A DNA stretch of 55,607 nucleotides from an uncultured Candidatus Melainabacteria bacterium (GTDB lineage: Bacteria > Cyanobacteriota > Vampirovibrionia > Gastranaerophilales > Gastranaerophilaceae). The notes under the pieces were generated by a model that saw only the letters and a list, made by a program, of their open reading frames with translations, was not told the origin of the DNA and did not search any database. The stretch is from assembly GCA_949915775.1 (NCBI GenBank), contig CATLEG010000003.1, positions 1 through 55,607 on the forward strand. The letters are read 5' to 3'. The translations under genes and the position numbers were made by a program. Below, piece after piece: positions 6,684 through 11,193 of this stretch. Positions within the stretch are counted from its first letter, which is position 1; each line of letters opens with the position of its first letter.

Positions 6684-6711
6684 TTGAAATTTCTTAAAAG
6701 AGAGTTATAAT
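6684..6711 (+). promoter_or_regulatory. Antisense-RNA promoter, peptide unit copy A
   Basis: TTGAAA, 16-nt spacer, TATAAT. It faces into the 3' end of the small peptide gene on the minus strand. The same TTGAAA-16-TATAAT arrangement is found at the equivalent place in copies B and C. Confidence 0.65.
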
Positions 6712-6717
6712 ATAAAT

Positions 6718-6812
6718 ATAAGGGCGAGAGGATTGCCGTCCTCTCTTTAAAAGCCCCGTTAATTGGATTTAAGCACTAATATTATCAGTAAGATAAGCGT
6801 TAGTGCTTTTTC
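6718..6812 (+). ncRNA. Predicted antisense RNA, type I TA unit copy A
   Basis: About 95 nt. It has a 5' hairpin GAGAGGA/TCCTCTC (6726-6745) enclosed by GGGC/GCCC, then a second stem AAGCACTAA/TTAGTGCTT (6771-6808) followed by TTTTT, which is a Rho-independent terminator lying inside the peptide gene. It overlaps the 3' half of the peptide mRNA, as antitoxin RNAs of Fst/TxpA-type systems do. The ends are predicted from the promoter and terminator only. Confidence 0.6.
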
Positions 6813-6830
6813 AGTTATACTGAATTCCAT
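6759..6830 (-). CDS. Small hydrophobic peptide, putative type I toxin copy A (23 aa)
   Basis: A 23-residue peptide, MEFSITEKALTLILLIILVL then KSN: a short polar start, a single hydrophobic Leu/Ile helix and a basic end. This is the layout of membrane-acting type I toxins. The ATG (6828-6830) follows a perfect anti-SD match, AAAGGAGGTGAT (6835-6846). The mRNA leader can fold CTTTCG against CGAAAG, which includes part of the Shine-Dalgarno. An antisense RNA promoter sits just beyond the stop. Two related copies are at 10293 and 11043. Peptide expression and toxicity are inference. Confidence 0.6.
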   Translation of the reverse strand: MEFSITEKALTLILLIILVLKSN

Positions 6831-6908
6831 CTTCATCACCTCCTTTCGTCGTTTTACTGATTTATAGTCCGTTCGCCGAAAGCAAGGTAATTAGGCTTAC
6901 CCGCTTTT

Positions 6909-6937
6909 ATAATACATCTTGAACAAGAAAATGTCAA
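6909..6937 (-). promoter_or_regulatory. Sense promoter, peptide unit copy A
   Basis: TTGACA, 17-nt spacer, TATTAT, read on the minus strand; near-consensus. Predicted start near 6902 gives a ~70-nt structured leader that begins with the GGGTAAGCC shared by all three copies. Confidence 0.65.
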
Positions 6938-9652: not shown

Positions 9653-9856
9653 ATGATTAAAAATAATGTTTCATTATTAATAGGAATGAGAAAATTGACA
9701 ATAGCAGAAACTGCTAAGTTAGCAGGCTTGTCCTATAATACGGTATATAGCCTTTATCATGATGAGACGCTAGGTATAGAATTTTTAACTCTAAATAAAT
9801 TATGTAATGTTTTAGAGTGCTCAACAAGTGATTTGTTTAAACATATTCCAGACTAA
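9653..9856 (+). CDS. Small XRE-family HTH regulator, paralogue 1
   Basis: A 67-residue protein that is almost entirely a Cro/CI-type helix-turn-helix. IGMRKLTIAETAKLAGLSYN holds helices 1-2 and NTVYSLYHDET the recognition helix, then LNKLCNVLECSTSDLF. It resembles the YozG-like minimal regulators. A second copy with about 60% identity follows at 9960 on the same strand. There is no clear Shine-Dalgarno; TACAAT lies 6-11 nt upstream of the ATG, so the mRNA may be leaderless. It probably represses itself or neighbouring accessory genes. Confidence 0.8.
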   Translation: MIKNNVSLLIGMRKLTIAETAKLAGLSYNTVYSLYHDETLGIEFLTLNKLCNVLECSTSDLFKHIPD

Positions 9857-9959: not shown

Positions 9960-10163
9960 ATGTTAAAGAATAATATCTCTACTATTATTGGAAAACGAAA
10001 AATGAATATTGCAGAGACCGCTAAAATTGCAGGTTTAGGGTATAATACTGTTTATAATTTGTATTATGATAAAACGTCAGGTATCGATTTTGCAACAATA
10101 GATAAGCTTTGTCTTGCTTTAGATTGTACACCAAATGATTTATTATTATATATAGAAAATTAA
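9960..10163 (+). CDS. Small XRE-family HTH regulator, paralogue 2
   Basis: A 67-residue single-domain Cro/CI HTH, with IGKRKMNIAETAKIAGLGYN, NTVYNLYYDKT and IDKLCLALDCTPNDLL. It matches paralogue 1 along its entire length without gaps, so it is a tandem duplication with 103 bp between the genes. The recognition helix differs at few positions (NTVYSLYHDE against NTVYNLYYDK), so the operators may overlap. The first peptide unit promoter begins 14 bp after its stop, so a regulatory link to that unit is possible. Confidence 0.8.
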   Translation: MLKNNISTIIGKRKMNIAETAKIAGLGYNTVYNLYYDKTSGIDFATIDKLCLALDCTPNDLLLYIEN

Positions 10164-10177
10164 TATTTATCTAAATC

Positions 10178-10206
10178 TTGACTTATTATTAATTTGTAGA
10201 TATGAT
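10178..10206 (+). promoter_or_regulatory. Sense promoter, peptide unit copy B
   Basis: TTGACT, 17-nt spacer, TATGAT. The ~112 bp from here through the Shine-Dalgarno are identical to copy C, including the leader stem CTTTAC/GTAAAG (10240-10245 with 10272-10277) directly before the ribosome site. Confidence 0.7.
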
Positions 10207-10292
10207 TAAAATGGGTAAGCCCATTATCACAGTCCATAACTTTACGGAACAAACTATAAATTTGAATAACTGTAAAGAAAGGAGGTGATGAG

Positions 10293-10367
10293 TTGATAAT
10301 TGCAATTACAGCAAAAGAGTTAATACTAATCTTAACGATAATATTAACTCTTAAATCAACAAAATAG
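10293..10367 (+). CDS. Small hydrophobic peptide, putative type I toxin copy B (24 aa, TTG start)
   Basis: A 24-residue peptide, MIIAITAKELILILTIILTL then KSTK, starting at TTG 7 nt after the GGAGG of AAAGGAGGTGAT (10278-10289). The nearby ATG at 10288 stops after two codons. It is a single hydrophobic helix with a basic end, like copies A and C. The coding sequence contains an 11-bp perfect inverted repeat (10315-10325 with 10342-10352) that doubles as the antisense terminator. A second hairpin, GTGCGGA/TCCGCAC (10379-10398), follows the stop. Function as a toxin is inference from architecture. Confidence 0.58.
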   Translation: MIIAITAKELILILTIILTLKSTK

Positions 10368-10406
10368 GGGCTTTTAAAGTGCGGACTGCAATCCGCACGC
10401 CCTTAT
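10312..10406 (-). ncRNA. Predicted antisense RNA, type I TA unit copy B
   Basis: About 95 nt from the opposing promoter at 10413-10440. The 5' hairpin is the GTGCGGA/TCCGCAC stem. The 3' end is the 11-bp stem in the peptide gene followed by TTTT. It overlaps the 3' half of the peptide gene and its 3' UTR. The ends are predicted. Confidence 0.6.
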
Positions 10407-10412
10407 ATTTAT

Positions 10413-10440
10413 ATTATAACTCTTTTTTTATAAATTTCAA
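10413..10440 (-). promoter_or_regulatory. Antisense-RNA promoter, peptide unit copy B
   Basis: On the minus strand: TTGAAA, 16-nt spacer, TATAAT. Conserved in place and spacing with copies A and C. Confidence 0.65.
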
Positions 10441-10464: not shown

Positions 10465-10506
10465 AGATTAGTAGGTTGGGGCTTTTAGCCCAACAATTAT
10501 AATTAA
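10465..10506. repeat. 41-bp direct repeat with internal palindrome (left copy)
   Basis: Contains GTTGGGGC TTTTA GCCCAAC and recurs at 10876-10916 with one base fewer. The two copies flank a repeat-rich insertion and precede or follow the two tandem peptide units. Confidence 0.7.
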
Positions 10507-10875
10507 AGGAGCTATGCACCCCTTTCAACCCGTACAAAATATGTTCCCCTCCCTTGGGGGAGGGTGTCCGTAGGACAGGAGAGGGTTAATCATGTGGGGA
10601 TTATGCATCCCCACACCCAATAATTTCCCAGCAAACAACATGGTACTTTCTTGTACCGACAAGAAAGTACCGCAAAGAAGCTCTCGACCTACACTACACT
10701 CACTAATCAATTGTAATTGCTCAATCTAAAGCTCGCAAACTCACGTCATGCTGAACTAGTTTCAGCATCTCATAATAACTTATCGTTCAGACAATGCTCG
10801 CTTCGTTGTTATTTCGCAAACATTGATTGTTCGTTCCGCTAATGGTCGAACCATCAATACAAATTGCCACAAAGT
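10507..10875. repeat. Repeat-rich non-coding stretch between peptide units B and C
   Basis: No gene is supported here. It holds several perfect palindromes: TGTGGGGAT/ATCCCCACA (10593-10615) and GGTACTTTCTTGT/ACAAGAAAGTACC (10642-10671). It also has a CCCTCCCTT...GGGAGGG element near 10550-10585 and a copy of the GTCATGCTGAA...TTCAGCATCTC repeat (10746-10770). It appears to be a landing zone for short palindromic repeats. Confidence 0.6.
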
Positions 10876-10916
10876 AGATTAGTAGGTTGGGCTTTTAGCC
10901 CAACAATTATAATTAA
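10876..10916. repeat. 41-bp direct repeat with internal palindrome (right copy)
   Basis: Matches 10465-10506 apart from one G. It is followed 10 bp later by the copy C promoter, suggesting that the unit repeat plus TA was duplicated and then interrupted. Confidence 0.7.
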
Positions 10917-10926
10917 TATATTAATC

Positions 10927-10955
10927 TTGACTTATTATTAATTTGTAGATATGAT
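10927..10955 (+). promoter_or_regulatory. Sense promoter, peptide unit copy C
   Basis: TTGACT, 17-nt spacer, TATGAT, identical to the copy B promoter and leader. Confidence 0.7.
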
Positions 10956-11042
10956 TAAAATGGGTAAGCCCATTATCACAGTCCATAACTTTACGGAACA
11001 AACTATAAATTTGAATAACTGTAAAGAAAGGAGGTGATTTAG

Positions 11043-11114
11043 ATGATATTCGCAGCTAGCGAAAAAGCACTAATTATAATTTTAATAATCATAATAGTGC
11101 TTTCATTAATCTAA
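11043..11114 (+). CDS. Small hydrophobic peptide, putative type I toxin copy C (23 aa)
   Basis: A 23-residue peptide, MIFAASEKALIIILIIIIVL then SLI. Its ATG lies 8 nt after the GGAGG of AAAGGAGGTGAT (11027-11038). It shares EKAL plus a hydrophobic helix with copy A. The internal inverted repeat AAAGCACTA/TAGTGCTTT (11064-11103) matches the stem of copy A but not of copy B, although the leader is identical to B. The 3' hairpin GGGGCAAG/CTTGCTCC (11130-11151) differs from both. It runs convergently towards ilvC, so it is not an ilv leader peptide. Confidence 0.58.
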   Translation: MIFAASEKALIIILIIIIVLSLI

Positions 11115-11159
11115 AACGGGGCTTTTGAAGGGGCAAGCGTCAACTTGCTCCGCCCTTAT
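11061..11159 (-). ncRNA. Predicted antisense RNA, type I TA unit copy C
   Basis: About 99 nt from the promoter at 11166-11193. The 5' hairpin has a CTTGCTCC/GGGGCAAG stem. The terminator is the TAGTGCTTT/AAAGCACTA stem followed by TTTTT inside the peptide gene. The ends are predicted. Confidence 0.6.
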
Positions 11160-11165
11160 ATTTAT

Positions 11166-11193
11166 ATTATAACTCTTTTTTTATAAATTTCAA
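11166..11193 (-). promoter_or_regulatory. Antisense-RNA promoter, peptide unit copy C
   Basis: On the minus strand: TTGAAA, 16-nt spacer, TATAAT. Same as copies A and B. Confidence 0.65.

What the first reader, a model, noticed from the sequence alone, without database searches (positions are those of the whole stretch)
10927..11193. Second tandem unit (copy C): same promoter and leader, different peptide and stems
About 112 bp from the promoter to the Shine-Dalgarno are identical to copy B, and the antisense promoter region is also identical. The central ~100 bp, comprising the peptide, coding stem and 3' hairpin, have diverged. Identical flanks with diverged antisense-contact regions are what one expects if paralogous type I systems avoid cross-neutralisation.
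Basis: partly seen in the sequence, partly recalled or inferred. Interest (0 to 1): 0.75.

Follow-up and report, generated by a model that had tools for sequence, protein, structure and literature searches.

The report
Paired toxin-antisense cassettes on shared chassis
This gut bacterium carries several copies of a tiny gene for a membrane peptide with a built-in antisense off-switch; two neighbouring copies share identical on/off machinery but have different peptide and antisense parts, a mix-and-match pattern seen across more than 100 relatives.

Summary
Copy C (10927-11193) and copy B (10178-10440) share 112/112 bases from the promoter through the Shine-Dalgarno and 61/62 across the antisense promoter, while the ORF segment (60/92) and the 3' hairpin (10/21) have diverged. 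The sequence just outside the units is unrelated. They belong to an undescribed, type I toxin-antitoxin-like family in Candidatus Gastranaerophilales: 113 copies in 38 genomes, with no Rfam or Pfam match to the unit or its peptides. The peptide (19-27 aa) has an intact frame in 106/106 copies, the antisense promoter is present in 104/106, and the coding stem and 3' hairpin covary strongly. The coding stem reads as the antisense RNA's own terminator, inside the toxin ORF. The pattern is general: within a genome, leaders and antisense promoters are more alike than between genomes, but the antisense-covered region is not, and 0 of 158 same-genome pairs reach 85% identity there. B's and C's centres are old types found in other species, and the shared flanks are the younger part, so this is flank homogenisation or cassette exchange rather than divergence after duplication. 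Predicted non-cognate pairing is weak. Toxicity, antisense expression and orthogonality remain unproven.

The parts
10927..10955 (+). copy C sense promoter: TTGACT (10927-10932), 17-nt spacer, TATGAT (10950-10955); start predicted at about 10960-10962
   Evidence: sequence; 71% of 105 copies have at most 3 mismatches to -35/-10 against 7% of shuffles
10962..10971 (+). 5' end GGGTAAGCCC, complementary to GGGGCTTTT (11118-11126) and GCCC (11152-11155): predicted 5'-3' long-distance interaction
   Evidence: predicted in 92% of 71 copies
10975..11038 (+). leader: anti-SD ATCAC..TCC (10975-10984), leader stem arms 10989-10996 and 11019-11026, SD GGAGGTGAT 11030-11038
   Evidence: fold z -4.7; leader stem coevolves, own 13.0 against swapped 10.5 sd 0.2
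11043..11114 (+). copy C peptide ORF, 23 aa MIFAASEKALIIILIIIIVLSLI
   Evidence: frame intact in 106/106 homologues
11064..11103 (-). coding stem AAAGCACTA / TAGTGCTTT; on the minus strand it is a terminator-like hairpin followed by UUUUU (complement of 11062-11066): predicted 3' end of the antisense RNA inside the toxin ORF
   Evidence: (T-run of 4 or more after the stem in 71% of antisense against 2% of sense orientations)
11130..11151 (.). 3' hairpin GGGGCAAG-CGTCAA-CTTGCTCC: terminator stem of the mRNA and 5' stem-loop of the antisense RNA
   Evidence: all 7 pairs covary
11061..11159 (-). copy C predicted antisense RNA, about 99 nt, two stem-loops; does not reach the SD or start codon
11166..11193 (-). 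copy C antisense promoter: TTGAAA (11193-11188), 16-nt spacer, TATAAT (11171-11166)
   Evidence: 104 of 106 copies have at most 3 mismatches, mean 1.23 against 4.25 shuffled
10178..10440 (+). copy B: promoter 10178-10206, SD 10281-10289, ORF 10293-10367 (TTG start, MIIAITAKELILILTIILTLKSTK), coding stem 10315-10352, 3' hairpin 10379-10398, antisense promoter 10413-10440 (minus strand)
6684..6937 (-). copy A: promoter 6937-6909, SD 6843-6835, ORF 6830-6759 (MEFSITEKALTLILLIILVLKSN), antisense promoter 6684-6711 (plus strand)

Best explanation
Copies A-E are chromosomal type I toxin-antitoxin-like loci of a family confined, as far as searched, to Gastranaerophilales and related Melainabacteria. 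A sigma-70 type promoter makes a ~200-nt mRNA for a 23-24 aa hydrophobic, probably membrane-inserting peptide. The full-length mRNA is predicted to be locked: its 5' end pairs with its 3' end and the SD is paired with the leader. A convergent promoter at the 3' end makes a ~100-nt antisense RNA of two stem-loops. The first mirrors the mRNA's 3' hairpin; the second is the antisense terminator, formed by the coding stem inside the ORF. The antisense covers the C-terminal two thirds of the ORF and the 3' UTR, not the SD, so it most likely acts by loop-loop contact, full duplex and RNase III-type decay (as RatA, SR4), perhaps also by holding the SD closed. Anatomy, coding constraint and covariation are shown by sequence; transcription, toxicity and neutralisation are inferred. 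B and C share a chassis (promoter, leader, antisense promoter) homogenised within this lineage, while their specificity cassettes (ORF plus coding stem, 3' hairpin) are older types shared across species, so their antisense RNAs should not cross-act.
For: Family of 113 copies in 38 genomes. Covariation 0.527 against 0.209 shuffled. Frame intact 106/106, antisense promoter 104/106; changes by codon position 800/278/723, pN/pS 0.56. Antisense-direction U-run 71% against 2% sense. Members in other lineages (GWF2_37_15 type; L032) carry textbook antisense terminators at a different place in a longer ORF. Folds z -4.7 and -6.9 (mRNA), -4.4 and -4.9 (antisense). 5'-3' interaction predicted in 92% of 71 copies. 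Chassis and cassette histories differ. Cognate binding -99 to -111, non-cognate -1 to -34 kcal/mol.
Against: No RNA, toxicity or antitoxin data. SD sequestration is weakly supported: SD pairing 0.73 against 0.64 with shuffled leaders, and no better than swapped anti-SD. About 29% of copies, including the EEL type, lack a strong U-run. Non-cognate pairs keep 9-13 nt of perfect complementarity (GGGGCUUUU, GAAAAAGCACUAA), so some cross-talk is possible. The pN/pS contrast is not frame-specific (shifted frame +1 gives 0.45); codon position 2 conservation and the intact frames carry the coding argument.
Confidence: 0.8

Rival explanations
1. A small, non-toxic membrane peptide (regulator or stress peptide) under cis-antisense control, with the same anatomy but not a toxin-antitoxin system.
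For: Toxicity is untested and some genomes in the genus lack the family (9 of 33), so it is dispensable. No toxin family matches the peptide.
Against: Multi-copy and patchy, nearly all copies retain both frame and antisense promoter, and the locked-mRNA plus 3'-antisense layout matches known type I systems (PMC6562991, PMC6733600).
Confidence: 0.15
2. Neutral mosaic: gene conversion homogenises flanks wherever homology allows and stops at the already diverged centres; no selection for insulation. (This concerns why the pattern exists and is compatible with the best explanation of what the loci are.)
For: B and C centres are ancient types; conversion needs homology; 3' hairpin or loop sharing within genomes is not clearly depleted; MAG assemblies can collapse identical copies.
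Against: No same-genome pair has antisense regions at or above 0.85, against 2.98 expected under label permutation (P 0.046), although leaders reach 0.9 or more in 14 pairs.
Confidence: 0.5
3. Recent duplication of one unit followed by rapid compensated divergence of the centre.
For: Flanks 100% identical.
Against: Coding segment of B is 100% identical to G009 L046 and of C 96% to G028 L006; a B+C clade is rejected for the centre, p-AU 0.0028.
Confidence: 0.04
4. The identical flanks are an assembly artefact (reads of two copies merged).
For: The genome is a draft of 143 contigs.
Against: Unique sequence on both sides of each copy; 14 same-genome pairs in several genomes reach a leader identity of 0.9 or more, most short of full identity.
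Confidence: 0.04

Closest known systems
bsrG/SR4, bsrE/SR5, txpA/RatA (Bacillus subtilis type I systems; PMC6562991)
   Same: Small hydrophobic toxin; antisense overlaps the 3' part of the mRNA; terminator stem-loop of the antisense can be the recognition loop; SD occlusion plus RNase III decay.
   Different: Here the peptide is 19-27 aa in most copies, many paralogues share one chassis, and the antisense terminator stem covaries within the ORF. No sequence relation found.
aapA/IsoA (Helicobacter and Campylobacter; PMC6733600)
   Same: Multi-copy chromosomal family with a 5'-3' long-distance interaction that locks the primary transcript (predicted here), and SD sequestration in the leader.
   Different: The antisense here is predicted not to reach the SD or start codon, and no sequence relation was detected.
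Ibs/Sib (E. coli; Rfam SIB_RNA RF00113)
   Same: Very short hydrophobic peptides, several near-identical repeats per genome, stem-looped antisense with specificity regions (from general knowledge).
   Different: Rfam match far below threshold (17.3 bits against 56). From general knowledge Sib covers the whole ORF and SD.
Clostridioides difficile type I set and zorO/orzO-zorP/orzP (PMC6563280, PMC3919570)
   Same: Paralogous type I systems in which mostly only the cognate antitoxin works; a short variable region sets specificity.
   Different: Here flanks are homogenised within genomes and the variable part comprises ORF and hairpins; specificity is only predicted.
msoT1/msoA1 (Microcystis, 2025; PMC12390103)
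   Same: Described as the first type I system in Cyanobacteria; antisense complementary to the 3' end of the CDS and the 3' UTR, two hairpins.
   Different: MsoT1 has 63 residues with two predicted membrane helices, against 19-27 aa with one hydrophobic stretch here.

Membership tests
type I toxin-antitoxin system | short hydrophobic peptide ORF with ribosome-binding site | tested here: met
   frame intact in 106/106; consensus MxFSxTEKALxLILLIILxLK
type I toxin-antitoxin system | antisense RNA gene overlapping the toxin mRNA | tested here: met
   sequence level only: promoter 104/106, terminator-like stem with U-run in 71%; transcript not seen
type I toxin-antitoxin system | peptide is toxic on overexpression | not testable with these tools
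   needs expression assay
type I toxin-antitoxin system | antisense neutralises by base pairing | not testable with these tools
   binding energies only
type I toxin-antitoxin system | non-translatable primary transcript (SD occluded) | tested here: inconclusive
   5'-3' pairing predicted in 92%; SD pairing only slightly above shuffled leaders
Ibs/Sib (Rfam SIB_RNA) | match to the Rfam model at gathering score | tested here: not met
   17.3 bits against 56
aapA/IsoA | antisense covers SD and ORF | tested here: not met
   predicted antisense of C ends near 11061, SD at 11030; that IsoA covers SD and ORF is from general knowledge
known Pfam or NCBIfam toxin family (Fst/Ldr, Hok, TxpA/BsrG and others) | profile match of the peptide | tested here: not met
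   no Pfam match up to E 0.1 and no NCBIfam match above cut-off; profiles have little power on 23-aa peptides
msoT1/msoA1 | 63-aa toxin with two membrane helices | tested here: not met
   peptides are 19-27 aa, 35-39 aa in other lineages

The most novel reading that the evidence does not exclude
A constant-chassis, variable-cassette toxin-antitoxin family. Gene conversion keeps promoter, leader and antisense promoter uniform within each genome, while specificity cassettes (ORF with its embedded antisense terminator, and 3' hairpin) persist across species and reassort, with selection against two copies in one cell sharing a cassette because they would cross-neutralise.
Probability: 0.35. Interest if true: 0.78.

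Novelty: new variant of a known kind. Interest (0 to 1): 0.6.

Why it matters
A 2025 paper states that type I systems were known only from Proteobacteria, Firmicutes and Tenericutes, plus one new case in Microcystis (PMC12390103); I found no report for Gastranaerophilales in the papers searched. The family adds over 100 natural variants in a common uncultured gut lineage. Because the chassis stays constant while the cassette varies, it is a natural series for asking how paralogous antisense-controlled toxins become and stay orthogonal, which coding and hairpin positions set specificity, and how a hydrophobic peptide and an RNA terminator can be written in the same bases.

Tried and rejected
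Rfam at gathering and relaxed thresholds: only tRNAs at gathering, and chance-level matches such as SIB_RNA. Pfam and NCBIfam on the peptides: nothing. Phage, plasmid and viral-contig collections: nothing, so a phage or plasmid origin is not supported. pN/pS as coding evidence: 0.56, but a shifted frame gives 0.45, so I rely on codon-position bias and intact frames. SD to anti-SD coevolution: not above partner swapping. Depletion of shared 3' loops or identical 3' hairpins within genomes, expected if the 3' loop alone set specificity: not clearly found (loops 7/62 against 13%; identical hairpins 1.3% against 2.4%). Duplication then divergence: rejected by trees and nearest neighbours. First parsing by regular expression lost copies and was replaced by covariance-model alignment.

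Full report
What was checked. The finding says that copy C (10927-11193) repeats copy B with identical promoter, leader and antisense promoter but a diverged centre. That is right: 112/112 bases from -35 through the Shine-Dalgarno and 61/62 over CGCCC plus the antisense promoter, against 60/92 in the ORF segment and 10/21 in the 3' hairpin. Upstream and downstream 100-bp flanks align no better than background (44%, 40%), so identity ends at the unit edges. The two units lie 749 bp apart, start to start.

What it is. A search of the own genome gives five matches and the covariance model adds another: A, B, C, D, a divergent E and a diverged remnant. A pattern scan of genome contigs finds the 3' element in 50 stretches; nearly all records named beyond 'bacterium' are Candidatus Gastranaerophilales or Melainabacteria, with 'Cyanobacteria bacterium' and a few records titled Fusobacterium or Brachyspira that I take to be misnamed MAGs. 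A covariance model finds matches in 24 of 33 genomes of the genus, 30 of 146 of a class sample and 57 of 244 of a phylum sample, all but one of the last in one family. Viral contigs, phages and plasmids give nothing. I collected 113 aligned copies from 38 genomes.

Anatomy. Each unit has a sense promoter, a leader beginning GGGTAAGCCC, a leader stem, SD GGAGGTGAT, a short hydrophobic ORF, a coding stem, GGGGCTTTTAA, a 3' hairpin, GCCC with a T-rich tract, and a convergent antisense promoter. The ORF frame is intact in 106/106 copies and the antisense promoter has at most 3 mismatches in 104/106. Some copies replace TTGAAA/TATAAT by TTGACA/AATAAT, so the stronger -35 accompanies the weaker -10. 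Codon position 2 is the most conserved (800/278/723 changes), as expected for a run of I/L/V/F.

Structure. On the alignment of 113 copies 95.7% of cells pair, 14 of 19 pairs have changes on both sides, and the covariation score is 0.527 against 0.209 (shuffled) and at most 0.151 (slid). This alignment was fitted to the model, but RNAalifold on the independent MAFFT alignment shows the same compensatory pairs. Folding z-scores are -4.7 and -6.9 for the mRNAs and -4.4 and -4.9 for the antisense RNAs. The leader stem coevolves. The 5' AAGCCC is predicted to pair with the 3' GGGCUUU in 92% of 71 copies, resembling the 5'-3' lock of aapA mRNAs (PMC6733600). SD sequestration itself is only weakly supported.

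The coding stem is the antisense terminator. A T-run of 4 or more follows it in the antisense direction in 71% of copies and in the sense direction in 2%, so it could end the antisense RNA without ending the mRNA. Members in other lineages (GWF2_37_15 and relatives; L032) have longer peptides and a different coding stem, yet several again show a textbook terminator in the antisense direction, such as AAAAGACUUAGUA-UUU-CUACUAGGUCUUUUUU. The conserved E-K codons (GAAAAA) of the peptide are at the same time the U-run of the antisense RNA.

History of B and C. B's coding segment is 100% identical to a copy in G009 and 94% to one in G028; C's is 96% to another copy in G028 and 94% to one in G011. 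A tree of centres rejects B+C as a clade (p-AU 0.0028), while a tree of leaders rejects grouping C with its centre relatives (p-AU 0.0004). G000 and G028 make a two-by-two: leaders 1.00 and 0.90 within genomes but 0.76-0.80 between, coding segments 0.94 and 0.96 within type but 0.59-0.63 between types. The pair is absent beside ilvC in the other genomes of the genus in which that gene was found. So the flanks are the young part, by conversion, cassette exchange or both. C's 3' hairpin is identical to one in G009 that sits with a different peptide type, so the hairpin reassorts too.

General pattern. Over 158 same-genome and 5407 between-genome pairs, leaders (0.688 against 0.626) and antisense promoters (0.679 against 0.639) are more alike within genomes (0/1000 label permutations each); the antisense-covered region is not (0.683 against 0.688), and none of the 158 reaches 0.85, against 109 of 5407. 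This fits insulation but does not prove it: diverged centres also block conversion, permutation ignores phylogeny, and short-read MAGs may collapse identical copies. Sharing of the 3' loop within genomes is not depleted. Predicted binding is -99 to -111 kcal/mol for cognate and -1 to -34 for non-cognate pairs, with shuffled antisense at -2.5 and -4.4 for B and C; 9-13 nt of perfect complementarity remain in non-cognate pairs.

Comparison with the known. It works most like the B. subtilis 3'-overlapping systems (bsrG/SR4, txpA/RatA; PMC6562991) with an aapA-like locked mRNA. Cognate-only action among paralogues is known in C. difficile and for OrzO/OrzP (PMC6563280, PMC3919570). It matches no Rfam, Pfam or NCBIfam model. 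A 2025 paper reports msoT1/msoA1 of Microcystis as the first type I system outside Proteobacteria, Firmicutes and Tenericutes (PMC12390103); its 63-aa toxin is different.

Verdict. Observation confirmed; interpretation partly supported; an undescribed family that works like type I toxin-antitoxin systems. Transcription, toxicity, neutralisation and orthogonality are unproven.

Noticed in passing
window 9653-9856 and 9960-10163 (+): Two tandem 67-aa Cro/C1-type HTH genes (Pfam HTH_26) similar to each other lie directly upstream of copy B.
   Followed up: partly
window 10465-10506 and 10876-10916: Palindromic element TTGGGCTTTTAGCCCAACAATTATAATTAA flanks the B-C interval; 9 sites genome-wide with up to 2 mismatches, 0 for the reversed control. 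Could be a dispersed repeat that helped unit movement.
   Followed up: partly
L136:293-437 (-), also L145, L146, L150, L152, L154, L157: Divergent subfamily with peptide EKALWLILxIxIAL and a different 3' hairpin (copy E in this genome); some members have weaker antisense promoters.
   Followed up: partly
L022:1929-2262, L051:530-856, L052:519-845, L035:811-1154, L068:1498-1832: Quite different short peptides (MKLELIKKALEWLELIIKLILILL, MDNFNLALFLIFLIIFIIKNDTHIK and others) appear to sit on a similar leader/antisense-promoter chassis.
   Followed up: no
L056, L076, L081, L088, L032: Members in other Melainabacteria lineages with 35-39 aa peptides carry the antisense terminator at the C-terminal codons.
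   Followed up: partly
L135:1377-2628: Array of four units about 307 bp apart in which neighbours share the 3' hairpin stem or the coding stem but never both.
   Followed up: partly
window 10746-10773: Short repeat (TCATGCTGAACTAGTTTCAGCATCTC) between B and C, 96% identical to a stretch near ilvC in another genome (L202); looks like an unrelated dispersed palindrome.
   Followed up: no
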